The position numbers were made by a program, and so were the translations under genes. The notes under the pieces were generated by a model. It worked only from the letters and a program-made list of their open reading frames with translations, was not told the origin of the DNA and did no database searches. From Daedaleopsis sinensis (taxonomy: Eukaryota; Basidiomycota; Agaricomycetes; Polyporales; Polyporaceae), in assembly GCA_033807695.1 (NCBI GenBank), contig CM066304.1, positions 4,278,001 to 4,342,000 on the forward strand: 64,000 nt of DNA. Direction: 5' to 3'. Each line of letters opens with the position of its first letter. Position 1 is the stretch's first letter. Below, one piece after another: positions 19,138 through 64,000 of the stretch.

Positions 19138-19379
19138 AAATATATACTACTCTAGTTACCCAATATGATTGACATAGCCCCTCTTTAGTTGGCCAATCTG
19201 ACCGGATCGAACTAAAGTATATAGACTACTAGGACCGTCCGATCGGATGTGGGGGATATACCTTACATCAGTTGTTCGATACGACTGGGCCTTTGGGTAC
19301 CTACTAGTGGGTTACTGGTATTCATGTCCGATCGGACTACTAGTATGCCCACTCACCATCAGCCTACCCATCTGGCGCT
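19138..19379. other. Junction between NLR pseudogene and GC-rich array, with CCGATCGGA motifs
   Basis: No gene. It contains GACCGGATCGAAC near 19200, CCGTCCGATCGGATG near 19235 and GTCCGATCGGACTACTAG near 19328. The same motif family recurs at the far side of element A (37600-37760), so this is probably the subterminal zone of that element. Confidence 0.5.
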
Positions 19380-20470
19380 TGCTTCTGTCCGGTCCACTCG
19401 GCGCTTGCTCGCCCCGCCCGCCTGGCGCTTGCTCTACTCCCGCCCCAGCCCGCCCCGCGCTCCCTCTGCCCAGCATCCCCAGCGCTTGCTCTGCCCCCGC
19501 CCCGCGCTCCCTCTGCGCAGCATCCCTGGCGCTTGCTCTACTCCCACCCCCACCCCCTGGCGCTTGCTCTACCCCGCGCACCCGCGCACCCGCACCCGGC
19601 TCGCCATGCTCAGCGCGGCTCTCAGCCCACGCACCACTCACCGTACTCAGCGCGGCTCTCACCCGCGCACCCGCGCACCCGCACCCGGCTCGCCATGCTC
19701 AGCGCGGCTCTCAGCCCACGCACCACTCACCGTACTCAGCGCGGCTCTCACCTCGCGCACCCGGGCACCCGGGCACCCGGGCACCCGGGCACCTGCGCAC
19801 CTGCGCACCTGCGCACCCGGCACCCGCGCACCACTCACCGTACTCAGCGCGGCTCTCACCTCGCGCACCCGGGCACCCGGGCACCCGGGCACCTGCGCAC
19901 CTGCGCACCTGCGCACCCGGCACCCGCGCACCACTCACCATACTCAGCGCGGCTCTCACCCGCGCACCCGTGCACCCGCACACCCGCGCACCCGCGTACC
20001 CGCGCACCCGCACCCGGCTCGCCATGCTCAGCGCGGCTCTCAGCCCACGCACCACTCACCGTACTCAGCGCGGCTCTCACCTCGCGCACCCGCGCACCCG
20101 GGCACCCGGGCACCTGCGCACCTGCGCACCTGCGCACCCGGCACCCGCGCACCACTCACCGTACTCAGCGCGGCTCTCACCTCGCGCACCCGGGCACCCG
20201 GGCACCCGGGCACCTGCGCACCCGGGCACCTGCGCACCTGCGCACCTGCGCACCTGCGCACCTGCGCACCCGGCACCCGCGCACCACTCACCGTACTCAG
20301 CGCGGCTCTCACCTCGCGCACCCGGGCACCCGCGCACCCGGGCACCACTCACCATACTCAGCGCGGCTCTCACCTCGCGCACCCGGGCACCCGGGCACCC
20401 GCGCACGCGCACACCCGCGCACGGCTCTCCATGCTCAGCGCGGCTCTCAGCCCACGCATTGCTCACTGTA
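19380..20470. repeat. GC-rich higher-order minisatellite rich in ACCCGGG
   Basis: About 1.1 kb of tandem repetition. Short blocks GCACCCGGGCACC and CTGCGCAC are repeated 2-6 times inside a larger unit of about 90-110 bp that restarts with CACCGTACTCAGCGCGGCT or CCATGCTCAGCGCGGCTC. The left end (19380-19560) is a degenerate version with GGCGCTTGCTC. Frames are open on both strands merely because stop codons are absent from the unit, so I do not call a gene. The ACCCGG core is also the most over-represented hexamer I notice in the body of element A. Confidence 0.85.
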
Positions 20471-20908
20471 CTCAGCGCTGTCGCCCGACCAGGAGGTGAG
20501 CTTGCCAGACGCCGTGGTTGGTGCTAGCCATACCTGTTCCGTAGAGTTTCAAGCCAAGTGCCCAGATTAGGTCCCAAATATTTGCATCCGGATATCCGGA
20601 ACCGGGTATAAATATTTGCATGTGCCTGTTTGCATTCGTACCACTATCTCATCAGTGTCATGTACAGATCCGGCGGACAATGGTGACCATCTGAGTCGAC
20701 CGATCGCAGTACGTCGCGGCAAAAATGCTTTGGCGCTTGTGCTCTGGGCGTCTTCAAACAATAGAAAATTGCACATCACCCTTGTGAACAATTGTCAATC
20801 ATTGTTTTCGGTCACATAGTCAACAATTGAAGTAACCCAAAGAACAATCAGCCTGATTGTATATATCAGTACCTGCGGAAATGGGTCATTCACACTTCTG
20901 CCACCACC
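20471..20908. other. Upstream region of the small W-rich gene
   Basis: No gene. It contains ATATCCGGAACCGGGTATAA near 20590, a set of CAATTG-centred words (GAACAATTGTCAATCATTG near 20787 and CAACAATTGA near 20822) and TATATA-like sequence at 20859, about 50 bp before the ATG at 20909. These are plausible promoter elements. Confidence 0.4.
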
Positions 20909-21603
20909 ATGTCAGACTCATTTGCCCCCATGCCACCTGGCAGTCCGACGTCTGACCTCAGAGCCGCGACAACCCCCACCCACAAGGATTTAATCAAGAC
21001 AGCTGCAGAAAATGAGGCGGAGCTCTACTGCTGGAGAATCCAGGAGGCGGTCATGCACTACCCGGCAGAGCCCACTCCGTTGGATAGCGCTCGGTTTGCC
21101 CACGGTATTGGCCGTGAGCTTGTAAGTTTCAGTTACCCGCCCTTTATGACTCACGCTAATAGTCATTTGCAGTGGATGATAATGCCCGCCATGGGCATTA
21201 GTGCAACCCTGGCCCAGGTGTCGACAGCCAAAGGCTTTAGCTTGGTCCCTCAAACCATGCTACATATTCTCGAACATACCGACTGGTTTGGTATGCGTCT
21301 TCGGGTCAACATAGCCGATATCTCCCGCCTCGAGATTCGGGACTCCCGCGATTTCCTCCTAATGGAGATTGGCGACGTATCAACTGTCGCGGAGAAGTTG
21401 ACACCCGCCTGGTGGAAGTGGACCGACACTGACCACTTTCCCAAGCCGTCCTGGTGGATCTCACCAGATGCGATGGTGGTAAGTCTCATATTACTCCATT
21501 ATAGGATGTTGTCCCATTTGAGGGCATCCTTCAGCCGAGGCCTATGTCCATCCACTTGTCGGATATTGACGAAGCTGGAGATCCGGCTGAAGCTGATAAC
21601 TAG
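20909..21603 (+). CDS. Small W-rich KDZ-associated protein (element A)
   Basis: Exons 20909-21121, 21173-21478 and 21505-21603 give a 205-aa protein. I do not recognise a named domain. Visible features: helix with CWRIQEAVMHYPAEPTPLDSARFAHGIGREL (residues about 40-71, quoted in parts elsewhere), a hydrophobic middle, and a tryptophan cluster AWWKWTDTDHFPKPSWW near residue 160, followed by a short acidic tail DIDEAGDPAEADN. The gene in element B at 52931-53701 has the same exon layout and the same sequence of marks (WRIGQAIESFPGNPTPLD, AKWWEWDRQ, TWWCTP), so this is a conserved KDZ cargo gene under selection. Function is unknown. It is transcribed away from the KDZ transposase gene here but in the same direction as it in element B. 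Confidence 0.75.
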
Positions 21604-22132
21604 CCGGCGTGGATCGTACGTACCTTACTATTTTCTACCCGACCTTATCCTCACGCCAGATAATGTAGCACCGGGTAGATTGACAACATCATTGGTCTCT
21701 GTAGCTGCTCCAGAACAATGTGATTGTATATCTGTAGAAAACCATTAACATTGTTCCAATTGACTCACAATGCACTCGTCTTGACACTACGACCATCGGC
21801 CTATTCTATCTACTATGGTACGTGGATCTTATAATTGTGATAGCCGTTACGGCTGTCGGATCCGATTCGCCATGTAGCCACCGGGCTACACCGATCACTA
21901 GTATGTTATAGAGACCTCCGTTATACGATCGTACCCACTATTATCTGCATATTCATTATCCGATCCAAGACCTGACATTCCATTAGAGCCGTCCGATCCG
22001 GGTATGGCCGTTTGCACTGTGGTGCTCGGATCCGGCCCATGATGTGGTCACTTCAGTGGTCCGATCGTACCTGTCAGGTGTGTGACTTGACAGTGGATCC
22101 ATCACATAGCTGCATCCTATAAGCCGGCGAAA
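21604..22132. other. Spacer with GATCCGG/CGATCG words
   Basis: Between the W-rich gene and the 3' end of the KDZ gene. It has repeated words such as GTCGGATCCGATTCG (21855), GTCCGATCCGGGTATGG (about 21992), GCTCGGATCCGGCCC (about 22027) and GTCCGATCGTACC, matching motifs near both ends of element A. No gene. Confidence 0.5.
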
Positions 22133-25100
22133 CTACAAAGTTACTATAGGAGGTGGATGTAGCTGCTTAACTACAGTAAACTCACTTTCGGCATGCTGCC
22201 GAAGATCCCCCCACAACGCAGCCTGTCTAGCCGCCCACCCAGGGTAGTTCAATTCATTGCGCTTCCTCCATTTGGTCTCCTCGTGCTTGAATGTTGCGCA
22301 TGTCTTCTCCATTTCTGTAAGAAGCAGAACGACCTCTTCCTGTAGGCGGATGTGTCGTGCATGGGCCCGCAACCATATGACTCTAGCCACTGGGAAAGAT
22401 CAGCAACCAGGCTTACTGTCGAGCGAACCTGGCTCCACTTACACTCCGCGGACCAACCATCGTCGCGAGATCCCTCATCCATCCCCAGAGCCCAGAACCA
22501 CGGTAGGTGCTCCCGACTCACTCCTCGGACGCTGTGCTCAATCAGAGCCGTGTTTGCCTTCAGCTGCGTCTTCTCCAGAACTTTATACTTGTCCAGCGTC
22601 GCCCGGAGCTCTGTGTCGTCCGAGGGTTTATCCGGCTTGAACAGTTTCATGTACGATTCCCGAGCTGCTGTGTATAGCCGAGCACTTGCCAGTACGTCCG
22701 CTTGCACTAAGTGAACATCGTCAAAGCTCCGCAGCTTTTGACGGTGAGTTCCAGCTTTTCGAACTGAAGTCCGATAGAGCACCGACTTGTAGCCGACCGA
22801 GACCCGCACCCGATGCAAGGCGTCGTTCATCTGGCCGATCTGTAGCTTCCTTTCCGCCTCTACCAGCTTGGTCAGCTTGTGTGTTGTGCAAGTATCAATA
22901 CCAAGATGTGAAGGGAGGCATATGGTGAGCCGTTCGGGGAGAGCCGGAGTGACTGGAGCGTCGTTTGACCCGTCGGCTATGGGCTCCTGATCTGCGCTTT
23001 CCCCACCATTATCGGGTGACGATGGACGGGAGAGTGGGTTCGGTTCTTGACTGTCGTCGTCGTCGTCAAGTCTCTCCCATCCTGGCCCTATTGGACCTTG
23101 CACAGGTGCGCGAGCGACCGCCTCACTGATCACCGAGGCTGGCAAGAACCTGGCGCCTTGGCGATGAAATTTGGTAATGTCGGTCAACAGTCGGCTCCTC
23201 ATTTGCTCCAAAGTGAGCCTGTCGGCTGTTGACGAGTTGGCGTTCACGGTTCGGGCTTTGGCTGCCACTGCTAAGCTGTAGAAAGACTGTGTCAACGGTG
23301 ACATCGGTTGCTTTAGAAATAGGAAGATCTTGCCGTTGCTCCTCGATCTTTAGCCCGGATAGTATCCAGGCCGCTGCGCCTCTTGGCTGAGCTCCACGCG
23401 CCTTGTTCTCTTCCTGCGTCAATGCGACTGCGATTTCTGCCTTGGTTGGGACTAGGAGATTGTGACAAGTCAAACATCGGTCGGGTTTAAGTGCCCAAGT
23501 TACTTACTTTTGGAGGATTGAACGTCGTAGATATCCATAAATTCAATTTTGTCCCTGCGCGCAGCCGCTGCGCGCTCGGCCATTGCGCGCCATCGGGCTA
23601 CGACATCCGGGTTGGACTCAGGCGTCAGCGACTCCAGAGCCTCTCTAGCCGGCTCATAGTCAGCACAAGCGGCTCTCCACTTCTTCACAATATACGCAGC
23701 TACAAGGGTGACGGTAATAGCATGGTCAGTATTGGTATGGCATATGTCTGTATGGGCCTACCGTGTCGGGTTAACTTCGTCCAGTTGGAATCGTTCATAA
23801 TGTCGTCGATGCTCTCCTGTCGATGAGCACTGGACATGCCTCTCGTACTGTCCGCAATTTGATTGGTCTTGACCCATAACGTCTCGATGATGTCCGCGGT
23901 TTGTACGCCGGCTCCCGGGATAAAATTTGGCGAGTAGCGGGGATAGCATTCCTTGATATGGCCGTGGACGTGAAATTGATCAATTCCTCCGTCCACTTCC
24001 AGCCCGTCTGGCCAGCACAGCCCAGGACTCTTGTCAAATCTTTCCTTCAGGTGACGACAGTAGAAACACCAGATGTCGTAGAATAGCAAAATCATCGTGA
24101 TGCCATAGATGAACGAGACAGCTTGATAAAAGCCATAGTCCATGTTCCTTTGCCTATGACATCGGTCAGCCACATTGTGCATGTTACTAGACCCAATAGT
24201 ATTTTACCCTTCGCCCCTGTCGAAGTTGACGACACTGCGTGGGTAGAAAAACCCGTGGCGGCTGCAGGCGATCGCCCCGATTCCCGTCGACTCCAAACCA
24301 GATTTGGTTGCAGCGGCAGCGAGTACAGCCCGGTGGTCATGGCATGTTAGTTGCTAGCCCGGGTACTGTCAGCCGGGTACAGGGGTAGATACGCAGAACC
24401 ACACGGACCTGCCTACGTTGAAACACCGTTTTCAGATGCTCCTTGTAGGGGGCGTCCTCGACCATGAAACCATGCCCATCTGCCAGCCGGACATCATCTT
24501 CTGGATTCTTCATCTTGCGGTGCTGTGCTGTGAAGTTGCCGTCCATGATCATGGAGGCGCGATGTTTCCACCTGGGGCTGCCATTAGCCGCAGACCGTAG
24601 GTTTGTGATCCGGACTCACTTGAGACGTTCGTTCTCCCACCCTTCAGGCATGTTTACCCCAGGCCTTGGACAAGCAGGACATGCTATGGCCAGACCGCCA
24701 GGGCCCGGCTCCAGAGCGTCATCATACCCGATGCCATGAAACTTCCTTCCCTTCAGATTCCGCCACTGTCGGGATACTCTGAGCATATCCCGGTAGCGAT
24801 CCTACTATACCGTGAGTATAAGCTTGACTACTAGTCACAACAGCACTCACGGGGACAGTATGGGGGAAAGTATCGTTGGTGAGACGCCTCAATCGATTGT
24901 AGTAGTTCATTATTGCCGTTCTACACTCCTTGTTTGTAAGGAGTACATCGTCCAGGCACCGGGTAGTGAACGCCGTCTTCGGCATTGACTGGGTCGCCGG
25001 ATAGAGACCCATCTCCAACAGTTGCAGATCGAAGGGCTTCGCCGATGGACAAATGCAAGGCCGGACTGGAAGTTCGTGAACCCCGGACGTATCCACTATG

Positions 25101-26568
25101 ACCATCATCCGTGACCCTCCCCGAAGCGGCTTTGAAGAACGAGGCCAGGAAGATGCGCGTTCTTGAAACATCGGGTAATGGGACCCGGGCATGTGCGCTC
25201 GATCCTCCTTTTCCACCGTGTAACCCTCGCCCTGAAGTTCCTCCGCATCAGGTTGGTTGGTCTCGTCATCTTCCCATTCATCGTCGCTCGCATCTGCTGC
25301 GGCCATCAGGAGCGATCCATCGGAGGATGGCGACTGCACACGGGGGCGTTTATTGAGTGTCGGGTCAGAGGTTGTCAACATCGTCTCTTCCCAGATCCGC
25401 TTGTAGAACTTCCCTGCTTTAGTTGGTGTCTCGACAGGTGATGACTCGGCACTGTCCACCGATGCTCGAGAGGGGGCATAGGGCGAGGATGGAGGGTTTG
25501 AATGTGGAGATGTAGCTCGCAGAGGACTAGAAGTATGGGACGTCCCTGGGGAGTCCAAAGTCCCGGAATGCAGACCGCGGATAATGGACGATGGCTGGAG
25601 CCTAAGCAGCGGCAATGGGCGTATCGGTCTAGATGGGATCTCAAGGGGTTTGAGCGAAGAGCGACTAGACCGCTGCAGAGATTCTTGGTCGAGGGCTCCG
25701 GCCGCAAGTCTCATACGGAGTTCAGACTGTCCGGTGGTTGAACCTTCGTCTCTGAGAGCTTCAGAGGCGGGTCGGTTATCGGGTCTGGCCGGTCGAGCAG
25801 CAACGGGTGATGTGTTTCGGCCTGAGAGTGATGAGTTACCCGTTGTCGTAGCAGATTCCACCGAGGCTTCGTCGGCCTCGTAGACTGGAGAGAGCAGATG
25901 TGGATTGGTGATAGGAGTTCGATTTCGGGAAGAGGGGGAAGCAGCCACGAACGTGTCCTGACTTTCGTGACATGGACAAGGCTGTCCAGCATGCCCGAGG
26001 TGCACGGTTAGGCCGACATGACGCAGGGATGCCGGCTTATAGTGGGTGCCTGTCCAAGACTCGACACGGTGAAATGGATCCTGGGCATGTGCCGTCAGAC
26101 AGCAGGAGACACAAAAGCTGGGAGTTCCCAGACAGTCGATACATCTCCATGAGGCAGCTACCCCACATGTACAAGTCAATCGACCGTTCTCCTGCTCATA
26201 GAGTACCTGTAGGTATCTGTCCCTGGAATCTGCAAGCCATGACCTCTGATAGCTGTTCGGGGTCTGGCAGAGATATCACGATGTGAGCGCTCCAGGCTAG
26301 TCATAGTTGAAACGACGCAACTTACATTCTTCTTGGAGCTCTCTGGTTCCAGTTGGAATGTGAAGGTAGTCGATGGGGAGGCAAACCTCCCACTAGGAGT
26401 CCCAGGGATACTTAGAGTCGCTATCGGCTGTGACAGATGGAGACCGGGTGTTCCTTCGGATTGTCCTTTCTTCGCTCGGGTTATGAGTTTGGTACCACGA
26501 CGAGTTTTCTTCGTGATGATTTCCTGGCGACGGAAAGGCTCCACTTTCTTGGGCTTTGGGAGTGACAT
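22133..26568 (-). CDS. KDZ superfamily transposase with CxC2 cysteine cluster (element A)
   Basis: Multi-exon transposase. Exon 1 (26568-26326) is a basic N-terminus. Exon 2 (26263-24851) begins with the CxC2 cluster: TCTCGVAASWRCIDCLG, then CVSCCLTAHAQDPFHRVE and GHAGQPCP, a zinc-binding module typical of KDZ transposases. After a Ser/Pro-rich spacer come HTVP/DRYRDMLRVSRQWRNL and DGNFTAQHRKMKNPEDD, then QLTCHDHRAV...STGIGAIACSRHGFFYP. The catalytic RNase H-like core follows: LLFYDIWCFYC (first Asp), DQFHVHGHIKECYPRYSP, then TADIIETLWVKTNQIAD (Glu) and GMSSAHRQESIDDIMND. The C-terminal half holds an acidic insert and GQMNDALHRVRVSVGYKS. All landmarks of the superfamily are present and no frame break is visible, so it may be active. 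It lies 52 bp downstream of the TET/JBP gene, on the same strand. Confidence 0.9.
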
Positions 26569-26619
26569 GGCAGTAGAAGAAGCCGTGTATTCAGAGACGG
26601 GAGCAGACGATAGTCAATG

Positions 26620-27975
26620 TTAATTACAGTCGGGTCTCTCGTAAGTATCTGTAGTCATCCAAGGTGTCTCCTTTCGGGTAGTATTCTGTCCGGTCTCATC
26701 GTGAGCCATATTGGTATACAGCGCGCGTGACATGAAAAACGCATAACAAAGCCGGTCAGGTGGAACTTCAGCAACACCATGATGGACAAGGAAACTCGAT
26801 AACATCACTGCGGTACCAGGTCTGTAAGACATTTGCATGCCAAGGTTGCGGGCAGCGAGTTGGGCCCGGTCGTAGCTCCCCAGGGTAATGAGCATGTCGA
26901 ACCAGGTTGGTTCAGCTGATGTATCACGATGGAAGGGTGTTTGCCGGTTGCTCAGAATATGGAGGCCATGGTAAACCAATGGCCAGCGCTGTATCGCCTC
27001 GCCGACGCGGGTAAAGCGTTCCCCAGCACGGAAGAGAGTCTCGTACCCGGCTTCAAACTGCTCAGGATGCGCTACTCGGAGCAGCGCGCTGATTAGAGCA
27101 CCGGACTCCTTCATGTCTTCAGCCCACTCGAGGGTTCCAGGCAAACGCCAGGTGGCACTCGGCGCCGGGTCAAATTTTGCACTCTACAACAAATTTTTGG
27201 TAAGTGCCACAATTGGTGTAGCCACGATTCAAGAGTCTTACCTTCTTGCCCACCTGATACCCGGCAGGTGTCACAAGCCAGGCTCCGGATCTCCACTGCT
27301 CGCCAGGTTGGAAAAACGCTTGAGAATCGCGCCATCTGGTCGTCGGCTGGGCACAGGGTGACCTAGTCTTGAGATAGGGCTCGATATGCCGGGTAGCCTG
27401 AAGGATGCGGTTCTGATTGACCGATATGGATTGGACGCAGGAACAGCGGGAGTGAATGATGGGGTACGCACCTGCCTGTCCGGTGTGAATACACCCGGAA
27501 GATGCCACATGAGAATCCTGCCGACATTGTCGACCACCACAGCCGGGGCTTGAAGGAGAGGCATGTCGTTGGCAATGACGCGCGAGGGATCACAGAATGG
27601 GGGAAACATGTTCAAAAGCCGGTTCTCGACATCTAAGTCGAACCCGGCTGTGCGTTGGCCAAGTGAGGCCCTCAGCTCTTCGGCATCCCAAGCCATGACT
27701 ACTGCATCCGATTGATGGAATGTGTTTGTACACGTGTAGGCTAGATGAGTCTGCAACTCACTTGGATAACACCACGCAGCCACTAGAACATCTGCGGCAT
27801 GGTCCAAATCCCGCTCCAATTCTTCGGTCCAAAGAGCCGATGGATCATACGGGATCACCTTCCGGGCAGTTGGTATGTCCGGGGCCGTTTTCGCCGTATA
27901 GAGCTTGCTGTTGAATAAAGCGACTAGACGTTCCCCAACATGGTGCTGAAAGAAAAGGAGCTCCTCGAATGACAT
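26620..27975 (-). CDS. TET/JBP family 2-oxoglutarate/Fe(II) dioxygenase (element A)
   Basis: Predicted nuclear 5-methylcytosine (or thymine) oxidase of the fungal TET/JBP group, which uses 2-oxoglutarate and Fe(II). About four exons: 27975 down to about 27760, about 27700-27470, 27409-about 27243 and about 27190-26620. Landmarks of the double-stranded beta-helix: TPFHRDTSAEPTW gives the HxD iron ligands, FLVHHGVAEV gives the distal His, and PPDRLCYAFFMS gives the Arg that binds 2-oxoglutarate. A stretch WRSGAWLVTPAGYQVGKK before the core fits the family. The catalytic residues are complete. The gene ends 52 bp before the KDZ transposase start, so the two are head-to-tail. The divergent partner is the HMG-box-like gene. 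Known: TET/JBP genes ride on KDZ elements in mushrooms. Inferred: it removes host methylation from the element. Confidence 0.88.
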
Positions 27976-28493
27976 GGTGGAACAGACGACGTGGCATCTT
28001 TCAAGGCGCCGGGTATGCTGATCAAAGCTGTTTGTCGGCTCTCTCCGTCGCTTAAACTCGGCTAGTCGTCGAGGGCTTCAAAACATTGGAGCCGCCTATC
28101 GGTATTCCCGGACACTTTACTGAACACTTCCAATATGCACAATATGTATAAGCCGTATGCTGCTATGTTATTATACCTCTATGCCATTGCACTATGGGAT
28201 GTGACCGGAACATAAACCGTGTGCCATCTCCGCGATAGTCCAGCGGCCTGTCCGCTCCTCATCGGCCTATTGTGAACTGCTAACCCGGAGAAATTTTCGG
28301 AGGAGCGTCATGAGACTCGGGTGCAGAGCAAGGGTGACTCCTCACTCGGCTACATCGGCACGAAGAGGGACACACATTCCCCTATCTCCCCGTAAATAGT
28401 GCAGGTGAAACAGTGCGATATCGGCCCTAACCATCCCAAATCTGCCCAATCGTCCGCCTTTCTCCCTTTGCCAGATTTCGAAACTTACCGTCC
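27976..28493. promoter_or_regulatory. Shared divergent promoter region (element A)
   Basis: A 518-bp gap between the start codons of the TET/JBP gene (-) and the HMG-box-like gene (+). It has the element's word at 28009-28014 (CCGGGT) and 28283-28288 (ACCCGG). The equivalent gap in element B is only about 245 bp. No gene seen. Confidence 0.55.
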
Positions 28494-31400: not shown

Positions 31401-31507
31401 CTAGCGAAGCCGAGGAACCAGCTGGCGAGGCCGAGGAGGCCTTTGTCCAGCCAGACGTCCCTCAGCCAGTGCGCCGGTCACAAAGGGTTCGTCAGAATGC
31501 TCAGTAG
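28494..31507 (+). CDS. HMG-box-like nuclear protein with low-complexity tail (element A)
   Basis: Multi-exon protein starting [17 protein letters not shown]. Early exons encode an HMG-box-like helical module ([11 protein letters not shown] then [21 protein letters not shown]), then [20 protein letters not shown] and a globular part with [18 protein letters not shown]. The middle is a strongly basic/acidic linker ([18 protein letters not shown] followed by a DDDDDEEED run), a likely nuclear-localisation and chromatin-contact segment. After an intron near 30530 a conserved stretch ([20 protein letters not shown]) precedes a long A/P/V tandem tail (30945-31240) and an Arg/Gly-rich end. The gene in element B (59242-62439) has the same exon logic and strand. 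Role is unknown; I infer DNA binding or transposon regulation. The exact set of small exons between 28684 and 29640 is approximate. Confidence 0.72.
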
Positions 31508-50516: not shown

Positions 50517-50586
50517 TGCGAAGGATGAAAACCGAGGATGGAACGAGGGAGTTTATATACGCGCAAACCGAGGACGGTTCGAATGC

Positions 50587-52745: not shown

Positions 52746-52930
52746 AGCGTCTCAGACCTGCCTCCCGCCCGGCCGGGACGTAGACACATGCACCCGTGCA
52801 TAGATCTGCTGCACGCGGTGTTCCGGTCAGCTCACACATGCATGTGCGTACGGACCGCTGATAGCCACTGCCGCACAGTCTCTTTTATATGCACCTGATC
52901 TTGGACCCTACATGAATGCTAATGTCCCTT
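52746..52930. other. Degenerate satellite unit next to element B genes
   Basis: Decayed copy of the satellite (CCCGCCCGGCCGGGACG, CATGCACCCGTGCAT, CATGCATGTGCG). It ends just before the 3' end of the W-rich gene of element B. Confidence 0.55.
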
Positions 52931-53701: not shown

Positions 53702-53823
53702 AGAGCTGTCTGCGCGATGTGAAATGGCTGTGGTTATCGATATGCAGCGACTGGGCTGCAGTCACTCCGGAGCATGTCCCACGGTTCACAATTGAACCAT
53801 AGTCACGTGAAACAGCTCTATTT

Positions 53824-56800
53824 TCATTCAGGTGATGTACTCGGGACGGGACGAACACAGGCTGTTACAGTAGTAAACATAGTCTGGGCATGCTCAGCAA
53901 GGTTTGTCCACAACTCCTGCTGTTTGCATGCATAGCTCTTGTGCCCGGCGCTCCGCGGAGTGAGACCCCACTCGTTCCAGTCCGCAGCTTTGCCCCGGAA
54001 TTTGCGGACGGTGCAGTCCATCTCAAAAGGCACTATTACCAACTCCTCATCCCATCGGAGTTTTCTGGCATAAGCTCTGAGCCACAGCATCTTGCGGACT
54101 GAGAGATTGTCAACAACTAGTCCGCGGAGCTCCAGAATGTTGTCACGTACGGTCACGCATCCATTCCTGACCCTCAGCCCTCTCCGAATCTTCTATATGC
54201 CAAAACCAGGCGGAAGATATGTTCCGAAGACCCTGTGTAAAAGACTCAATGACTGCGGTCTCTACACGGAGATCTTCCCGGACTATGGGCTTGTACTTGG
54301 CGAAGAGCTCCGTGCGAGCCTTAGTGTGCTGGGCGCTCCGGGGATTGAACAGCCGCTCCGCGGACTGCCTCGCTTGCATGTAGAGACGGACATGCTTGCG
54401 CACGCTTTCATCAGCGATGTGAATATCGTCAAAGCTCCGGAGACGTGTACGATAGGACGGAGCCTTCCGGATTTTTGTACGATAGAGGAGGGACTTGTAT
54501 CCGATGCCGGTACGGATTCCCTGGAGTGTGTCGTTCATCTGCCCCTCTCGGAGTTGTCTCTCCTTGAGTGCGAGGTCCCAGAGTCCGTAGCGGGTGATCA
54601 GGTCAGGTCCTAGGGTTGATGGCAGAGCGATCGCTTGGTTCTCCGGCTGTAGTGTGTCGTCATCCGCGTCATCCGGAGCAATATGGCTGTCTGCGCCGTC
54701 ATCGAGGGAGTCATCCTCCTCGTCCCACTCCGATCCGAGATCTGTGTTATGTGTCGCAGCAGCAAGGAGCGCGGACAAATTGTCGATAGGCATGAACCTC
54801 ATTGCTGTTCTGTTAAACTTTGCTATAGATCCGGCAAGCCGTCTTCGCTGTTGGGCAAGAGACAGTCGATTCTTCGCTGCGGAGCTCAGACCGAGTGTGC
54901 GAGCTGCAAACGCGACAGTCATCCTACACAATATGGTCAGTATAGCGACTGGATTCATCAAGCACCCCGGCCCACTTTGTCTGCTCTATTTTGATACCTT
55001 CCGAGAGCCACTGAGCTGCGCTCTGCTCCGATTCCGGAGTATCGTGAAGCTCCTCCTCGACGAGCATCGCTTCGACGTCACGCCGTCCCGGCACTACGCA
55101 AGCTCAGCTCGACGGACCAAGGACGCCCTTCGATATACTCACATGGCTTGGCCTGGATGTCGTAGATGTCCATCGCCTCTGAAGCGAGATCTCGGTCGAC
55201 GTCGGCTTGCTTGGCCTCTGCCATCCACTCGGACACCTTCTCCGCGGGGAGAGCAGCGGTGAGTCGCTTATACGCATCGTCGGCAAGCGGCTGTTCGCGA
55301 CACGCCCGTTTCCACTTCTGACAGAGAGCGTGTGCTGGGAATCTATCAGCACTCCAAGTCCGAGCATGTAGAGGTCGGACATTACCGATCCGGGTCAATT
55401 TCATCCAGTTAGAGTCGTTCATATGATCGTCGGTGACCTCCCTCCGATGAGCGGATGACATGCCCCGAGTGCTCCCCGCGATCTCATTTAATCTAGCCCA
55501 TAGAGTCTCTAATATTTCTCCGTCCTGGACGCCGATCCCACGTATGAAGTTCGCAGAGAAACGGGCAAAACACCGAGGGAGGTGGCCGTGTACATGGAAC
55601 TGTCCGATTCCGCGGAGAAACTTGACACCGTCCGGGATCGAGAGATACGGACTCTTGCTGAACCGCTCACGGAGGTGTGTGTAGTATTGACACATTATGT
55701 CGTAGAGGACCAGGATAATGGTGAGTCCGTTGAGATACGCCAGCACCCAGTGCAGCACATAGTCCATATTCTTTTGGCTAAGTTCCTCAGTGTCAGCGTC
55801 TCCGTGGAGCATGCAACCGAGTGACTACATACCCTTCCCCTCCGTGGAAGTCCACGCAGGCATGCGGACAAAAGAATCCGTGCCTAGAGCAGGCTGCCGC
55901 TCCGATGCCGGTGGCCTCTAGCTTGGCCCGTTCGATCTTGGAGTTCAACACCGCCCTGTGGTCATTGCAAGTATTCTCCTGCGCGGAGCGGTCACCCGGA
56001 GCCAACATAGTCACTATCTACCCTCACATACCTCTTTGAACACTGTAGCAGACTTCAGGTGAGCTTTGTATGGAGTGTCCGTGACCATAAACCCATGTCC
56101 ATCTGCGAGGGCAACATCGTCCTCCGGGTTCTTCATACGACGATGCTGCGCGCTGAAATTGCCGTCGAGAACGATTGAGCGTGTGTACTTCCACCTGCAG
56201 CAATGTCAGACAGAGCGAATGATCATATGGAGCAGGCTCACCCCTCTGGGTCGTTCTGCCAGTTCTCCGGGAGGTTAACTCCGGGCTGAGGGCACGCCGG
56301 ACAATGGACAGCCAGGTCTCCTTGCCCAGGCTCCTCGGAGCGGTGACCGTAGCCGTTCCACTTCCTTGACTTGAGATTCCGCCACTGCCTGGAGACACGG
56401 AGGAGCTCACGATACCGATCCTGTACCGTAGGTCAGCATATAAGGGAGCTCGGATAACGTCTCCAAACCCACCGGGGCCATGTGCGGAAATGCAGCATTC
56501 GTCATACGACGGAGCTTGTTAAAGTAGTTCCGTGGAGAAGTATGAGTCTCCTTGTTGTCCAGCAAAAAGTCATCCAGCAACCGTGTAGTGAAGGCGGTAC
56601 GTGGGCGGACTGAGGAGGCTGGGTACAGATTCATGCACAGAAGCTGTAGATCATCGCGGGCATGGTTCGGACATCGGCAGAATACCACCGGGACCTCGTG
56701 AACACCGGTGATGTCAACGATCACCAGGCTCCGGGTGCTAGACATGAGCTCCGCGGAGCTCGTGACTCCTGTTACGGGTTCTCCGAAAACCGGTAGTTCT

Positions 56801-57664
56801 GCCAGCGGAGCGAGAGGGATGTCGTCGTCAATCTCATCAAAGAGATAGTCCATGTTTTCGTCCTCAAGTCCTTCTGGATCTTCGTCGACAAAGAACAGCT
56901 CCCGGTCTGGTTCTTCAATCTGTTCAGATCGTCCCTCGGCGTCCGGAGCGTCCCGGCGCCCCGCGGAGCTCGTCCTTTCGCTATAGATCTCTGCGGACTG
57001 CGTGTACGGATGTGTTGGGCATGGCTGACCGCCGTGTCCGCAATGTATCTGCACTCCGACAGTACGCAGCCAGCTCCGGCGGAAGTGTGTACCGGTCCAG
57101 TGTTCAACCCGGTGGAACGGAAGACGGAGATGAGCAACACGGAGACAAGGGGCACAGTATGCCGGAGCGCCGATACAGTCTGTACATCGCCAGCTGGCTG
57201 TGTGTCCACACACACCGAGCTCTGAAGGAGGTAGGGTGTGTAAACTGAGTCCGAGATAGAGGTACTCTGCACGTAGTCCCAGGAATTCACGTTGATAGTC
57301 ATTCTGACTCTATGCAGCATGCGGACTGATTGAGCTCATGTGCGGGCTTCCATATTCCCCAGCTACTGACCTTGGATTTCTTCGCGGACTCCGTAAACGT
57401 GTGCTCATTGAAACCTGTATCGATTTCTTCGGACTCCAGGGGAGTAATCGGACTGGCGCGAGACGGAGTGGCATTGGGAGTTTGAGACGACTTTGCGGGA
57501 AGCGTCTTTGGCTCGGACCTCGTCCGCTTTGTGGTGATCCGTGTTCCCCGTGCGGTCTGACGGACTACTGCTGTCGTCTCGTTATACTTGGATACTGGAG
57601 GAGGTACGGTACGTCCGACTGGCATCGCGTCGGAGGGCGCACTGGTGTACAGGACAAGAGACAA
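53824..57664 (-). CDS. KDZ superfamily transposase with CxC2 cysteine cluster (element B)
   Basis: Multi-exon transposase. The N-terminal exon (57664, or ATG MPVGRTVPPP near 57625, to about 57380) is basic. Exon 2 starts NDYQREFLGLRAEYLY and holds the CxC2 cluster: VCGHTASWRCTDCIG, CAPCLRVAHLRLPFHRVE and GHGGQPCP. Next come VDITGVHEVPVVFCRC, KLRRMTNAAFPHM, DGNFSAQHRRMKNPEDD and NDHRAV...ATGIGAAACSRHGFFCP. The catalytic core shows LVLYDIMCQYY (Asp), GQFHVHGHLPRCFARFS, then DGEILETLWARLNEIAG (Glu) and GMSSAHRREVTDDHMND. The C-terminal region has an acidic insert and GQMNDTLQGIRTGIGYKS. It aligns along its length with the element A enzyme, with a shorter spacer after CxC2. No break is visible. 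Confidence 0.9.
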
Positions 57665-57690
57665 GATGCCCGATAGGTGACAGGGACGCT

Positions 57691-58997
57691 TTACATGTAC
57701 ATACTAGGTAGTTTCGCCCACTCTGGTAAATCCCCCCTCTCTGGCTTCGGGATGATCCCGTCCTTCCACAGCCATGCTAAGCAGATCCGATCGGGTGGGA
57801 CGGAAGGAACTCCGTGGAGCACCACGCGTGAGCTGACCATCACGAGAGAGCCGGAGTCATACGGAACACTAGCTCCGAACGTGCCCAAAGCGAGGACTGC
57901 TTTGTCTCCATAGGTTCCTACACTCAGCAAAGCGTCGAGCCAGCCCGGAAGACCGTTCTGATCACGGTGCATGATTGTCTCCCGATTGACGATCATCTGC
58001 GCCCCGTGATAGAACGAGGGCCAGGCCTCGACAAATGCTCGGAGGTCTGCGTCGTCGAGATGTAGTGTCGCATGTCGTTCGCGGACGACTCGGTAGAGCT
58101 CGGGATGAAGGACTGCAATGACACCATCCATCAATGCTCCGACCTCCTTCAGTGCTTGCATCCATCGCATTGCTGCCGGAGTCTTGGTGTCCGCCAGAAC
58201 AATGGGGCCTTTGGACTGACGGACGAGATAAGCTGTGTGTGTCTGCGACCAATCGAAAGACTAACCTGCCACCCGAGCTCAAACCATGCCGGTCCGAGAG
58301 TGACCTGTCCGGACTTCAAGGCTTTCCCTGGGGTGTAGTACTTGTTGGCCCGCCGCCAGTTCTTCTGAGAGCTCCGCCCTTCCGGAGTTTTCTGAATCTT
58401 GAGCTGATCTGCGATAACAGATGCGGCCTCCGTCACAGCCTTCTGAATGGGCTAGTGAGTATGCGGAGAGGTCAGCTGTATAGTGTAGCTGACCTGATGA
58501 CGGACTGCAAGCAGTGATGGCAACGATACAGCCATGATCCGTCCCTCGCAGTCTGTGAAGACAGCAGGCTCGGAAACCACGGGGAGCGGTCGAGTCCGGT
58601 CGAGTACAACCTCTGCCGGAACCAGAGGCTCGAATGCTCTTGTCAATTCGTCCTCTCTATCCACAGTAGCGGTGCAGGTCTTCTTGAGCTGGGATGCATA
58701 CGTAGTCGCGTCCCAGCTGACGCTATCTGTAGCATAGACATCAACAGTTGACCCATGCGGACACGGGGAAAACACGGTACAGTTGTTCCGCAAAGCTGAG
58801 ACTAGTGCGCGCGCGACGGCATGACAGTCTCCCACGAGGCTTGGGCTAATACCAGATGGCGGAGCGATTTCCGAGACATCCGGAGCGGTTCGGAGTGTGC
58901 TGTCATCCTTGGTACAGTACAGACTGTGCAGTCCGACAATGAACTTCGTGATTTCAGCACGTTTTCTGGTGTCAATTGGCGGGCAGGGGAGCGACAT
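57691..58997 (-). CDS. TET/JBP family 2-oxoglutarate/Fe(II) dioxygenase (element B)
   Basis: Predicted DNA base oxidase. Exons: 58997 to about 58495 (MSLPCPPIDTRKRAEITKFI), about 58440-58265 (KNWRRANKYYTPGKALKSGQ, PAWFELGWQ) and about 58215-57691. Core landmarks: TIMHRDQNGLPGWLDALLSV with the HxD ligands, VVLHGVPSVPPDRICLAW with the distal His and the Arg for 2-oxoglutarate. The catalytic set is complete. The gene ends 26 bp before the largest reading of the transposase start, so the two genes are tightly packed on one strand as in element A. The divergent partner is the HMG-box-like gene. Inferred role: erase methylation on the element or assist excision. Confidence 0.87.
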
Positions 58998-59241
58998 GGG
59001 AGATGACGAGCAGGAGCATCAGCGGAATCCGGATAGCTCGACAACGCGTGGTGTACACGAGGCTGTGATCGTGTACCACACTCCCGCTGTTCCTGATCTA
59101 AGCGGTAACACATGTTTCAAATACTGACGCTGACCCGCTGATTCGGGTCCCCCGCACAAGTTGCAAGCGCTCATTCAATGTCACTCCGCACATCCCTTGT
59201 GCAAGTCTACAACGAGGGTCTTTGCTCGTGAATCCCTGGCT
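58998..59241. promoter_or_regulatory. Shared divergent promoter region (element B)
   Basis: About 245 bp between the start codons of the TET/JBP gene (-) and the HMG-box-like gene (+). No other gene fits. It equals the arrangement at 27976-28493 in element A. Confidence 0.55.
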
Positions 59242-62200
59242 ATGGAAGATCCATCTACTCTTACACCTCAGGAGAAAGCTCACATCGAGGGGCTACAGGC
59301 GGAGTACAAGGCACTCCCGAACTCCGAGAAGCAGCAGTACCGATTAGACACAGCTAAGGAGATCTTTGAGGCCCGGGGGATACAGAACAATGAGTATGCT
59401 AAGTCGGCCGTGTGGCGGGTAAGTCCTCTGGATCTGCGTCCGACTCACGACCGATGTTAACTTTGAGCAGAAGGTCGATACATTGTTTGGGAACAAAAAT
59501 AAGGCGCAGAAGACAGACATTCCATTCAAGATTGCGCGGAACTACAGTGGAAAGAGGGTATACAACATTGTCGAGGCAGAGTCTATACGTGAGATTGTGG
59601 AGCAAGAGGCCACCGACGATGCGAACAAGCACCTGCGGGTTAGTGGTCTGTCGCGAGGACTGCAGTTAGATCTGATGAATATGTAGCAGTGGAATGACAC
59701 ATGGACGGAGCTCTGGTTGAGCCTCCCCCCCAAGGAGAAGCAGCGTTACGAGGATTTGGCGGAGGAGTGGAATGTGAAGGGCCCGCAGGAGGAGTACAAG
59801 CCTTTGTGAGTGCACTTCGCAGTGTCCACACGGAGCGGACTCTCACTCCAGGTTCCACGGACCGAGTAGTATTGCAAGCAAGCGTGCGGCATCTTGGATG
59901 CGCGCGGTGTGCGAGCTCTTCCACCAGCAGTGTGGCATGCCGCTCTTCATGTATGGTATGTACAAGAATGAGGACGGCAATATGCAAGCCGTGGTGTGAG
60001 TCGCACTGTATTCCGCATCACATTACTCTGCTGAGTGACTTTGAAGCTACGACACTTCGCAGCTTCTCCACAGTCGTGACGAGAACATCCCAGAGTTCCG
60101 GAAGCTTCCCAACTGGGACCGGAACTTCAGAGACACCGTTTGGAACTTCTTCCCCGGACTCATCGACCCCGAGAATCCAAATGCAGACGTTGTCGAGATG
60201 ATGGACAAGGCTCGGAAACGCCAGCCGGGACAGATCGAGTTTGAGACGTACGAGGACACTGGCCTTCCGATCATGTTCAACGTCACCGCAGAGGGCAAGG
60301 CTATCCCTCGTGGAGAGTATGCGAAGAAGCTGCTACGAACGTACTTAGGAATTCACCACCGTACGTCCGGTCTCTCCCTTGTAGTCGTGCGGCACTGATC
60401 GACTTGCAGAGTGGGCTGCAGGATCGACTACGGTCCGGACTCCTTGCTCTCATGGCAAAGCAGCCGGAGAAGTTCTTCGAGGATGGCATGCTGCCCGAAG
60501 ACGTGGCCATTAACGACCCGGAGCACATGCCGATGGACGCTGTCGTCGCGGTCATTAATCACATCGTCGGCATCGAGAACCCTCCGGAGGACTCTGAAGA
60601 GGAGGCTGTTCGATTCATGCTCTCATCATGGGGCAAGGACCGCAACATCTACGATGCGGAATACACGGAGCCTGTCGCTCCGGTGAAGAAGAAGGCTGCT
60701 CGTCGGAAAGGCAAGACCGCAGTCACTTTCGCGAGAGGACCCCGAGACGAAGACGAGGAAGACGAAATTACGGAGAGCCGGAAAAGTCGTCGGAAGGGTA
60801 CCAAGGCCTCTCGGAAACGCCAGCGGGCTGCCAAGGCCCCCCGGAAGAAAGGGGGCAAGAGAGCGAACCCTGACGAGTCTGACGCGGAGAGCTCCACCGA
60901 CTCGGAGAGCTCCGTCGACAAAGAACCATGGCTCGCAGGCGAGAGGACGTTCGACTTGGGTGATGAGAGCCCTGAAGACGAGGAGGAGCACAGCCAATCC
61001 GGGGCTGCCGGGGAAGATGAGGACGATGATGAGGACCCTCCGAACCCGGACGCGGACATCGAGACAGGCCCACCTAGTCGACAGCCTTCCGGCGGGGACA
61101 TGCCGAAGACTCCGCACGCGACGACAAGGAAGTCCGCATCCAAGTCTGCATCTAAGAGCAAGGGCAAAGGCAAAGCGACCGAGAACGACGTCGACATCGA
61201 CTTCCGCAGCGGCAGACTTGCTCCGATCCAGGTGAAGGATGCTCCCGCACACAAGGTCGAGTACTTCCGGCACTTCTGTGCGATATCGGAGTACCGGAAC
61301 ATGATATCCCGTGTCGAAAATCTTGTGAGTTGTGACTCCTACGCATCGTGATACGACGTGCACTCTCGCTCATTCGAATCAAATAACAGCTGAAGCAAGA
61401 TCCGAAGGGGGCGAGTGTCAAGAACCACTCCTGGATCTCGTGGTCTTATGAGGGCGCGCATGTTCCGGAGGAGATCCACACGTCTCATGTGCAGGTGGGA
61501 CGTCTGCTCGAATGGCTCGAGAGTTCTCCCGGCCTTGACGTAGGACCGGGCCCGGTTCAGCTCTATTGCCTGGCTATGGGAATGACGATGGGCGACATCC
61601 TGCTCTGTCAGACTGCCGGTGATGAGGAGGGTGTACTCCCGGACGATCTCCCGGAGTACTTCAAGAACACGGAGTTCGTGTTCTCCGACTTCACCAAGCT
61701 TGAGAAGGCTTGTGACCGTGCATTCCCCTCCCCCGGGCCCAAGCGTGTCCGGCCCGCTCGCAAAGCGGCTGGCCCGGGCCCCGCCGAGTCCTCCGGTACA
61801 TCTGCCAACGCCCCACCGACAAGTACCATTGAAGGAGCTGCTCCGACCGTTGCAAAGAAGAGCAGGCAGGCGCAGCGGAGGGATACAAACACGACACAGC
61901 AGCATGCTAACGATTCCCGCCCCACCGGGCAGGCTGCTGAAAGGTCCGCGGAGCGCGACATCCCAGACAACAATGCACCGGCGGAGAGCCCGACCAAGGG
62001 AGCTCCGCCTGTCGCTAAGAAGACCAAGCCGGCTCCGCGGCCGCTCGTGAAAACCGGGAAGGCCACGACACAACAGCAGGCTGACAGTGTCCGCTCGGCG
62101 GAGCAGCCAGCCTCACCTGCTAAACAGTCCGCGGAGCACGAGGGTCCGGACGCTCCGCGGAGAAGCTCCCGACCCCGCGTCCCTTCTAGGCGTCATGATG

Positions 62201-62439
62201 GCGACATCGACATGGATGGGACCGGCGCACAGACCCCACCCAAGAAGTTATCAAAGCGCAAGCGCACCCAGAGCGACGTTCAGGACCACGCTCCGGCGGC
62301 GCTACCACCGCCCGTGGTCTCCGAGGCGCCTGCAACCAGGGTGACGCGCCGGAGCGCCCGTGCTGAGCAAGCCCAGGAAGAGCATGCCGCGGAACCTACA
62401 CGTCAGCCTAAGCGTGGCCGTGGCCGGGTTAAGAAGTAG
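59242..62439 (+). CDS. HMG-box-like nuclear protein (element B)
   Basis: Multi-exon gene starting MEDPSTLTPQEKAHIEGLQA. Small exons: to 59418; about 59471-59638 (KAQKTDIPFKIARNYSGKRV, then EIVEQEATDDANKHLR); about 59689-59805 with an HMG-box-like helix LPPKEKQRYEDLAEEWN; about 59852-59997 (MRAVCELFHQQCGMPLFMY); about 60047-60360; about 60412-61324; and about 61390-62439. Middle: LSSWGKDRNIYDAEYTEPVA, then a basic KKKAARRKGK stretch, an acidic D/E run and KSKGKGKATEN. A conserved C-terminal module WSYEGAHVPEEIHTSHVQ and LYCLAMGMTMGDILLCQTAG precedes a disordered basic tail. It corresponds to the element A gene at 28494-31507 in strand, order and domain layout. Likely DNA- or chromatin-binding; the role in transposition is inferred. 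Confidence 0.75.
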
Positions 62440-62659
62440 CTGAAGATGTATTTTGTACTCACACAAGTTTCCTTGCCAAGAAATATGATTCTACATTCAT
62501 GGGATTCGTTACATGTTAAATAAATGGACTCCGGACACAGAGTACTCCAATCAGCAAGAAATCGGTGAGTATCTACATGTACATAAGCATAGCAGTCCGA
62601 GCAACAAGAAATCGGCAGGTATGTACAAGTCCGTGAACAGGAAGACCTCGTTTGCAGAT
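62440..62659. other. Convergent 3' flanks
   Basis: A 220-bp gap between the 3' ends of the HMG-box-like gene (+) and the coiled-coil gene (-). Contains terminator-type AT-rich sequence only. Confidence 0.45.
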
Positions 62660-64000
62660 TCAGCTGTCCTCATAGTCCGCAGGTTCATTGTCCGCAAGCT
62701 CATCGTCCGCAACGTCGTCGTCCGCGTCCTCCTGACCTTGCTCATCTGATCCCGATGACGAGGAGGTGCTCCAGTAGTCAACCTCCCCTGCCGGAGCATC
62801 CTCGTCAAACTCCACCGGATTCGGCTCGTACAACTCCATCTCCCAGTCCTGAATGACAGGGTCTTCGGGCCCTACCACCGGTCCAAACTCGTCGCTCTCC
62901 GGAGCATCTGGAGGAGAGTCCAGAGGCATGGAGAGGGGAGCGTCGACTGCCGGAGACGTGAGGAGCAACCCAGGGAGCGGATCCGCGCCCTGCGGAGTCG
63001 TTGAGGACTCACCGGAGACCTGTTGGGCCTGCTGTTCATCTGCAAGACGGCGTGTCTCCAAGATAGTCTCAACCTCCGCGGAGGACCGCTCACGGGTGCG
63101 CCGGATTGGGGTAGTCACCGGGGAGATGATGAAGGTGCGCGGGCGGCGATGGGGAGTCGATGGGGCCGACACAGACGTCACAGAGGCACTTTTCCGGGCG
63201 GCAGGTGCGGAGACCGCAGAGACTCCGCTTTGTCCCCACGTATGCTGCAACGCTTGAAATGTGCCCAGGACCGGCTTGCGGGGGAAATCGATGCTGCGGC
63301 GGGCCGCAAGACCTGCGGTGTGCTTTGGGAACACCGGAGTCCGTCGCGGAGGTGGCTGTGGAGACGGGGAGGATTCGGACCGCTTGTTGTCGACCTGCAT
63401 CGAGTCCTCTGTTGCGGGAGGAGGGGAAGGAATCGCGGGCGGATGATCAGCGACCTGCATCGAGCCCTCTGTCGCGGGAGGAACAGGCGGAAGCCAGGGC
63501 GGAAGATCGGGGAGGGGAGCGAGCTCCGGGACCGTGCTAAGGGACCTCGGAGATACTTCGCGCTCCGCGGGAGAACGGGGGGGCAAGGGAACATCTCCGG
63601 ACGACGGGCGGAGTCCGGACAGCGCTCCGATGATTGTGCGGTCGATTCCGAGTTGAGCAAGGTAGGAGTCGACATGGGATCGAACTCTCGCCTCCTCCTC
63701 CGCGGAGTCACGTCGCTCAAGGTTGTCGACTCGGGCGGAAAGTCGACGGAGCTCCTCCGCAAAAGTGGTCCGTAGACCGGAGTCGTCGTCAACGAGCGGA
63801 GCCGACACTCCGACCTGACTCTCAATCTGTTTGACACGCTCTGCGAGGGCGCGCAGCTCTCGGGAGTGGCGTCCCAGTCGATCCGCCAGCGCGACAGGGT
63901 GCAGACGCTTCTGCGCATCGTTCAGCGCAGCGTCCAGGGGGGCCTCCAGCGCTGCAAGCAGCTTCTTGCGCTCATCCCAGGTGATGTTCCGTCCTTGAAC
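62660..64000 (-). CDS. Coiled-coil protein, probable counterpart of the element A Zn-cluster gene, cut by the window
   Basis: The minus-strand frame is open from the window edge (64000) to the stop at 62660, about 446 codons. The visible part starts within QGRNITWDERKKLLAALEAP, runs through a coiled coil (LRALAERVKQIESQVGV and RRLSARVDNLERRDSAEEE), then a Ser/Pro-rich disordered region with repeated ATEDSMQV and ATEGSMQV words, and ends in an acidic tail with ADDDVADDELADNEPADYED. Position and strand match the last exon of the Zn-cluster/coiled-coil gene of element A (31632-34521), which also ends in a coiled coil plus acidic tail. The Zn cluster, if present, would lie beyond 64000. An intron may interrupt the frame. 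Confidence 0.6.
   Translation of the reverse strand, partial: VQGRNITWDERKKLLAALEAPLDAALNDAQKRLHPVALADRLGRHSRELRALAERVKQIESQVGVSAPLVDDDSGLRTTFAEELRRLSARVDNLERRDSAEEEARVRSHVDSYLAQLGIDRTIIGALSGLRPSSGDVPLPPRSPAEREVSPRSLSTVPELAPLPDLPPWLPPVPPATEGSMQVADHPPAIPSPPPATEDSMQVDNKRSESSPSPQPPPRRTPVFPKHTAGLAARRSIDFPRKPVLGTFQALQHTWGQSGVSAVSAPAARKSASVTSVSAPSTPHRRPRTFIISPVTTPIRRTRERSSAEVETILETRRLADEQQAQQVSGESSTTPQGADPLPGLLLTSPAVDAPLSMPLDSPPDAPESDEFGPVVGPEDPVIQDWEMELYEPNPVEFDEDAPAGEVDYWSTSSSSGSDEQGQEDADDDVADDELADNEPADYEDS

What the first reader, a model, noticed from the sequence alone, without database searches (positions are those of the whole stretch)
19190..64000. Two diverged KDZ transposons carry the same multi-gene cargo in the same order
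Seen: both elements have KDZ transposase (-), TET/JBP dioxygenase (-), HMG-box-like gene (+) and Zn-cluster/coiled-coil gene (-), plus a small W-rich gene beside the transposase. Proteins are homologous but strongly diverged, with catalytic residues intact in both transposases and both dioxygenases. Established: KDZ elements and TET/JBP genes are linked in basidiomycetes. Inferred: the whole set forms a conserved transposition and anti-silencing module, with three partner genes whose roles are undescribed to my knowledge.
Basis: partly seen in the sequence, partly recalled or inferred. Interest (0 to 1): 0.88.

Follow-up and report, generated by a model that had tools for sequence, protein, structure and literature searches.

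The report
Five-gene TET-carrying fungal jumping element
Two large jumping DNA elements in a mushroom-type fungus, one lodged inside the other, carry the same set of five genes, including an enzyme that can strip silencing marks from DNA, and nearly every relative found in that genome keeps the set together in the same order.

Summary
Element A (window 19125-37695, resuming beyond the window) and element B (from 37696) each carry W-rich gene, KDZ transposase, TET/JBP dioxygenase, HMG-like gene and Zn-cluster/coiled-coil gene in that order. B is nested in A. Exact ends show 7-bp target duplications and CA..TG termini; without inserts A is 19,455 bp and B 19,627 bp. In the window's own genome the order recurs in all five further families read. 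Of 22 TET loci, 22 have a transposase of one KDZ clade downstream, 21 the HMG-like gene divergently upstream, 19 the Zn gene, 17 the W gene within 15 kb. All five genes show purifying selection between two families. The W gene is inverted in A and one related family. TET-carrying Kyakuja transposons are known (Kojima 2025), and an HMG partner was reported in 2014 (recalled). The Zn and W genes and the fixed five-gene set I did not find in print, in an incomplete library. Their role, probably guided anti-silencing plus help in transposition, is inferred; other species could hardly be tested.

The parts
19125..37695 (-). Element A, left part (5'-CACATAACTCAG..). It resumes after B at L010:6015-6905 (C5:4348905, ..GGGGCTG). 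19,455 bp without B
   Evidence: TSD AAGAATC on both sides here and GTGGGTA at the C2 copy; ends by comparison of copies
19118..19124 (.). 7-bp target site duplication of A, left copy (AAGAATC)
   Evidence: second copy at L010:6906-6912
19537..20478 (.). subterminal tandem-repeat array at A's W-gene end (units about 89-132 bp)
20909..21478 (+). W-rich gene of A, exons 20909-21121 and 21173-21478; 3' end uncertain. Inverted relative to B and most relatives
22136..26613 (-). KDZ transposase of A with CxC2 cluster (many exons; ends approximate)
26623..27975 (-). TET/JBP dioxygenase of A (HRD..D kept)
28494..30639 (+). HMG-like gene of A, divergent from TET; 3' end uncertain
31635..34521 (-). Zn-cluster/coiled-coil gene of A
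35326..35793 (.). 69-bp tandem repeats about 2.8 kb inside A's other end
37696..64000 (-). Element B (5'-CAGCCCATGACATT..), continuing to L010:6014 (..ATCATGTG). 32,319 bp, or 19,627 bp without the retrotransposon
   Evidence: TSDs GAGGATA (window), TTTACCA (C1), GCGCGCG (C11)
37689..37695 (.). 7-bp target site duplication of B, left copy (GAGGATA), which is A sequence
37994..38815 (.). 196-bp subterminal array of B, first part (a 195-bp array lies at B's other end, L010:4752-5760)
38816..51507 (+). LTR retrotransposon (Ty3-type order RT-RNaseH-integrase) inserted in B's array, 907-bp identical LTRs
51508..52787 (.). 196-bp subterminal array of B, second part
52931..53705 (-). W-rich gene of B
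53827..57320 (-). KDZ transposase of B with CxC2 (ends approximate)
57694..58997 (-). TET/JBP dioxygenase of B (HRD, G331 and D337 equivalents kept)
59242..62439 (+). HMG-like gene of B, divergent from TET; C-terminal part uncertain
62663..64000 (-). Zn-cluster/coiled-coil gene of B, C-terminal part; the Zn cluster and N-terminal domain are in L010 up to about 2971

Best explanation
A and B are two complete members, with signs of recent movement, of one clade of TET-carrying, Kyakuja-like KDZ DNA transposons, about 19.5 kb each without inserts, B (with a retrotransposon in it) having jumped into A. Shown: the clade travels as a five-gene unit W-Tp-TET-HMG-Zn with fixed order; it makes 7-bp target duplications; tandem arrays lie near its ends; all five genes are kept by selection between two sister families. 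Inferred: the transposase cuts and pastes the ends; the TET enzyme oxidises 5-methylcytosine on the element so that it escapes methylation silencing; the HMG-like and Zn-cluster proteins bind DNA at the subterminal arrays, bending and pairing the ends and/or bringing TET and transposase to their own element; the small W-rich protein is an adaptor in that complex.
For: Ten insertions with exact 7-bp duplications in four families: A at C5, C2 and C12; B at C5, C1 and C11; F1 twice; F4 twice; an eleventh predicted in F3 (TCCGTGT; end-motif score 9 against at most 7 in 20 shuffles). W-Tp-TET-HMG order in 7 of 7 families read (with for A and B themselves) and the Zn gene in 7 of 7. 22 TET loci: KDZ of one clade 22 of 22, same strand, 2.4-4.6 kb downstream; HMG 21 of 22, opposite strand, 1.6-2.6 kb upstream; Zn 18 of 22 within 15 kb plus one at 16 kb across an insertion; W 17 of 22 within 15 kb. 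dN/dS 0.07-0.21 for the five genes in the true frame, 0.99-2.58 in frames +1, +2 and reverse. Nearest solved structure for both TETs is CcTet, E 1.6e-16 and 1.5e-15, an enzyme that Kojima 2025 reports as oxidising 5mC and 6mA.
Confidence: 0.65

Rival explanations
1. Split roles: HMG, Zn and W proteins are purely transposition accessories (end binding, bending, synapsis of ends some 19 kb apart), and TET acts alone and without target choice on methylated DNA.
For: Families A, B, F1 and F4 hold tandem arrays near their ends, a common layout for transposase and accessory binding. Kojima 2025 notes that oxidised 5mC also marks retrotransposons in C. cinerea and speculates about non-target-specific oxidation (passage).
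Against: HMG is divergently paired with TET at 21 of 22 loci, suggesting shared regulation with TET. Of the 113 KDZ loci typed into only 21 have a detectable HMG gene within 15 kb, so KDZ transposition as such seems not to need it (diverged HMG genes could be missed).
Confidence: 0.28
2. The partner genes are passengers: host genes captured once and carried along without benefit to the element.
For: Transposons capture genes passively, as Kojima 2025 argues for TET itself.
Against: Purifying selection on all five genes between F4 and F5; retention in families whose transposase segment is as little as 57% identical to the query. No clear free-standing host copy: the TET-less HMG, Zn and W loci lie beside element ends, KDZ pieces or each other, several with stop codons.
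Confidence: 0.05
3. The similarity of A and B arises from nested or tandem duplication or assembly error in one region, not from a conserved element.
For: A and B are indeed nested and lie about 93 kb from the contig end.
Against: Insertions on several contigs with distinct 7-bp duplications, and five further diverged families elsewhere.
Confidence: 0.02

Closest known systems
TET+ Kyakuja DNA transposons (Kojima 2025, PMC12730594)
   Same: KDZ transposase with AG-type TET/JBP gene, 7-bp target duplications, 5'-CA..TG-3' termini, found in Agaricomycetes including Polyporales (text parts 1-4 of 7, passages and legends read)
   Different: The main text has 0 occurrences of 'HMG' and of 'coiled', and I saw no other Kyakuja cargo in the parts read. 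It says that Kyakuja-1_LB and -2_LB have no TIRs; A and B here have imperfect subterminal inverted similarity (86% over 77 bp; 80% over about 83 bp). Its supplements could not be read.
KDZ transposon-TET/JBP association with divergent HMG protein (Iyer et al. 2014, PNAS)
   Same: KDZ elements linked to TET/JBP and encoding a divergent HMG domain (abstract recalled; not held); it is cited for the CxC clusters of KDZ elements in PMC7641404 and PMC12810828 (passages)
   Different: Whether that paper described the Zn-cluster or W genes or the fixed order could not be checked
VANDAL/VANC anti-silencing transposons of Arabidopsis (PMC5735166, PMC10398659, abstracts read)
   Same: Works like, if the inference is right: a transposon-encoded protein acting on family-specific noncoding tandem repeats to remove silencing
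   Different: Unrelated proteins and another type of element; VANC is not known to be an oxygenase (recalled), whereas here a TET enzyme is encoded; no targeting is shown here
Cryptococcus KDZ1 (PMC12810828, passages)
   Same: KDZ transposase with a CxC cluster
   Different: About 11 kb, 241-bp TIRs, 8-bp duplications, CxC1 rather than CxC2

Membership tests
KDZ transposon | KDZ transposase domain over Pfam cut-off, with an associated CxC cluster | tested here: met
   A: KDZ 95 bits, CxC2 86.5; B: KDZ 94.6, CxC2 84.8 (cut-offs 26.6 and 27)
TET+ Kyakuja | 7-bp target site duplication | tested here: met
   10 insertions in 4 families; not found for F2 and for the two abutting A copies on C1
TET+ Kyakuja | 5'-CA..TG-3' termini | tested here: met
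   A, B, F4 and predicted F3 (where CA..TG was a search condition). Exception: F1 begins GA
TET+ Kyakuja | AG-type TET: HxD..H triad and CcTET Asp337 equivalent | tested here: met
   HRD and D337 equivalent in A and B; Gly331 equivalent is G in B, Ala in A (Kojima: G or S)
TET+ Kyakuja | no terminal inverted repeats | tested here: inconclusive
   outermost bases do not match, but A and B have imperfect subterminal inverted similarity; stated by Kojima for two Laccaria families
TET+ Kyakuja | transposase falls in the Kyakuja branch of a KDZ tree | not tested
   no reference Kyakuja, Dileera or Zisupton sequences were fetched
HMG-box protein | HMG_box profile match and L-shaped three-helix fold | tested here: inconclusive
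Zn2Cys6 (GAL4-type) protein | C-x2-C-x6-C-x5-12-C-x2-C-x6-8-C spacing (recalled) and Zn_clus profile match | tested here: inconclusive
   spacing met in F1, F2, F4, F5 and B; first loop one longer in A; A's Zn exon has no Pfam match at E<=1; the PDB profile search gave one weak ribosomal match
VANC-like anti-silencing system | transposon protein shown to cause loss of methylation on its own family | not testable with these tools
   no methylation data

The most novel reading that the evidence does not exclude
The five-gene set is a self-contained, self-addressing DNA demethylation machine: the Zn-cluster and HMG-like proteins read the element's own family-specific subterminal tandem arrays and deliver the TET enzyme and transposase there, so each family un-silences mainly itself. 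It would be a fungal, enzymatic counterpart of VANC and, to my knowledge, the first transposon-encoded targeted TET system.
Probability: 0.22. Interest if true: 0.85.

Novelty: new variant of a known kind. Interest (0 to 1): 0.56.

Why it matters
Fungal transposons that carry a TET enzyme are known, and the text I read of the newest survey treats the enzyme as a passively captured gene. If it always travels in one clade with two DNA-binding-type proteins and a small conserved protein, under selection and in fixed order, then demethylation by these elements is probably a multi-protein function. That makes target choice testable: the arrays, the exact ends, an internal-deletion derivative still flanked by its duplication, and well-preserved insertions are defined here. 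It may also offer locus-directed TET tools.

Tried and rejected
Rejected: (a) the cargo belongs to KDZ elements in general; it goes with one clade. (b) CGG palindromes as general end sites of the Zn protein; enriched only in some ends. (c) A fold for the W protein; model pLDDT 43, not searched further. (d) CpG depletion as a methylation sign; at most mild, in F1 and F4's array. (e) A CA-N6-TCAGTA end motif: exact in 6 of 10 ends (both ends of A and F4, one each of F1 and F3), not in B; kept as a lead. F3's ends were picked with that motif in the score, so they are not independent support. End prediction by motif plus duplication recovered the known F4 ends (12, shuffles at most 8) and proposed F3 (9, shuffles at most 7; 24,066 bp), but gave nothing above shuffles for F2, F5 (right end not fetched) or F1 (known left end begins GA). 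(f) Protein database: W profile 3 hits (one Polyporus arcularius protein, E 5e-25), HMG profile 1 hit, Zn profile none; sensitivity is limited, so absence says little. (h) A weak PDB match of the HMG protein to GTF2I-repeat chains (E 0.038) was not pursued.

The W offset of -13,058 at C1:5375943 belongs to the neighbouring copy and is not counted. TET locus C8:554527 shows no partner within 15 kb; its transposase exon at C8:556916 is, its Zn match (16 kb) and its W match (27 kb).
Full report
What was checked. The window is C5:4278001-4342000 of an unnamed 51.6-Mb genome in 24 contigs. Comparing its open frames with one another gives two collinear gene sets, A and B. Pfam names the KDZ transposase with its CxC2 cluster and the TET/JBP oxygenase in both; the other three genes have no match over a curated cut-off in the exons scanned. 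Spliced models are my own rough predictions, good enough for comparison but not for exact gene ends.

Exact anatomy. Comparing copies gives base-exact ends. A starts at window 19125 (CACATAACTCAG) and ends at C5:4348905 (GGGGCTG), flanked by AAGAATC twice; its C2 copy is flanked by GTGGGTA twice. B starts at 37696 (CAGCCCATGACATT) and ends at C5:4348014 (ATCATGTG), flanked by GAGGATA; its other copies are flanked by TTTACCA (C1) and GCGCGCG (C11). So the window's B lies inside A, close to A's right end, and on C1 another B lies inside another A copy at a site 316 bp away in A's sequence: two separate insertions. The two A copies on C1 abut each other and show no matching duplication pair. B itself holds an LTR retrotransposon (38816-51507) with identical 907-bp LTRs. 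Without inserts A is 19,455 bp and B 19,627 bp. F4a measures 19,789 bp; F1a measures 19,180 bp including a 1,410-bp gag element. These four families make 7-bp duplications; three of the four begin CA and all four end TG, F1 beginning GA. Tandem arrays lie near both ends of A, B and F4 and near at least one end of F1.

Recurrence. One search finds 22 TET loci in the genome. I fetched about 30 kb around six and 20 kb around a seventh, five families in all besides A and B. W, Tp, TET and HMG lie in the same order in every one, with W, Tp and TET on one strand and HMG on the other. A Zn-cluster gene follows in every one, on the TET strand. The Zn protein has a conserved N-terminal domain, a six-cysteine cluster (C-x2-C-x6-C-x9-C-x2-C-x6-C in the three families aligned) followed by a conserved tryptophan-bearing stretch, a coiled coil and, in several, an acidic tail.

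Genome-wide, the HMG query finds 22 loci, 21 within 15 kb of TET; the Zn query from F4 finds 15 loci, 14 near TET; the Zn query from B finds 8 loci, 6 within 15 kb, one at 16 kb across an insertion and one (C7:2902958) without TET but about 4 kb from a B-like end; the W query finds 21 loci, 17 near TET. Seen from TET: KDZ on the same strand at 22 of 22, HMG divergent at 21 of 22, Zn at 19 of 22 and W at 17 of 22 within 15 kb. The three TET loci without a Zn match are one family (C3:198651, C3:4499965, C4:484461), which I could not read. The loci without TET look like remnants: C12:2124836-2135843 is an 11.0-kb form of A that kept W, Zn, both ends and a perfect CATTGGA duplication but gives no KDZ, TET or HMG match; C8:2746152 and 2746818 hold HMG and W pieces with stop codons beside an F4-like stretch; C7:3506758 and 3509047 hold KDZ and W pieces.

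One clade. With an F4/F5 hybrid transposase query, 26 of 110 matches (23 loci) are 50-98% identical and 84 are 27-36%; none lie between. The 22 TET loci all belong to the first group; the 23rd locus is the C7:3506758 piece. So the module marks one clade, not KDZ elements at large. Within it the W gene is inverted in A (3 loci) and in the C3:198651 family (3 loci), which share a related left end (77-78% over about 100 bp), against 11 loci in the other orientation: probably one inversion in a shared ancestor.

Selection. F4 and F5 differ at dS 0.7-1.6. In the exon cores chosen, dN/dS is 0.17 (W), 0.07 (Tp), 0.21 (TET), 0.14 (HMG) and 0.20 (Zn); the same alignments read in frames +1, +2 and reverse give 0.99-2.58, and the reverse frame that aligns third positions gives 0.18-0.36 (a first, less careful run gave 0.14-0.31). 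Frames were set by the best tblastn match, which favours conserved stretches. With that caution, all five genes appear to be doing something for the element.

Function. The TETs' closest solved relative is CcTet. Kojima 2025 summarises that CcTET oxidises 5mC and 6mA, that C. cinerea has 46 such genes with Kyakuja elements, and that the surroundings of Kyakuja are rich in oxidised methylcytosine. So an anti-silencing role of TET is the standing hypothesis, untested in transposons there and untested here. The HMG-like protein is a weak but consistent call that agrees with the recalled abstract of Iyer et al. 2014. The Zn protein looks like a DNA-binding factor by cluster spacing. My reading is that HMG, Zn and W help bind and pair the ends and direct TET to them. 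The comparison with VANC (abstracts), which acts on family-specific tandem repeats, is an analogy, not a relationship.

Novelty. Searches of the held library for KDZ, Kyakuja, HMG, TET, JBP, CxC2 and Zn2Cys6 combinations listed no paper whose title or abstract start describes the Zn or W genes or a five-gene Kyakuja module; only the listed rows were seen (for example 20 of 399), and passages of three papers were read. Kojima's main text holds no 'HMG' or 'coiled', but supplements, figures and Iyer 2014 were out of reach. Cross-species support is thin: one Polyporus arcularius protein for W and one unplaced protein for HMG.

A puzzle left open. F4 and F5 share a 595-bp noncoding end at 98.3% while their genes are far more diverged. 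End exchange or conversion between families is the simplest account; it was not tested further.

Noticed in passing
L031:3006-3600 and C3:4764986-4765580: The outermost 595 bp of families F4 and F5 are 98.3% identical although their genes are diverged at dS 0.7-1.6. Suggests recent end exchange or gene conversion between element families.
   Followed up: partly
window 16329-17738: 1,410-bp gag-only copia-like element with 182-bp identical LTRs and AAGAA duplication; a 99.9% identical copy sits in the transposase gene of F1a on C7.
   Followed up: partly
window 37696 and C1:5326124-5346490: B inserted into the right end of A copies twice, 316 bp apart in A's sequence, with different duplications: a possible preference of B for A's end.
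   Followed up: partly
C12:2124836-2135843: Internal-deletion derivative of A (11.0 kb; W and Zn kept; no Tp, TET or HMG match) flanked by CATTGGA on both sides.
   Followed up: partly
C2:1051676-1060112: Two B-like ends facing each other 8.4 kb apart with no TET or KDZ match listed between them: a possible non-autonomous relative.
   Followed up: no
C1:5364527-5365396: Two A copies abut, one right end lacking its last 24 bp at the junction: possible end-to-end joining or recombination.
   Followed up: no
window 9557-11890 and 12942-15132: Tandem pair of diverged sugar-transporter genes.
   Followed up: no
window 1541-3235 (-) and 18739-19120 (+): NACHT/NPHP3_N-type NTPase gene, and a related fragment right beside A's insertion site.
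   Followed up: no
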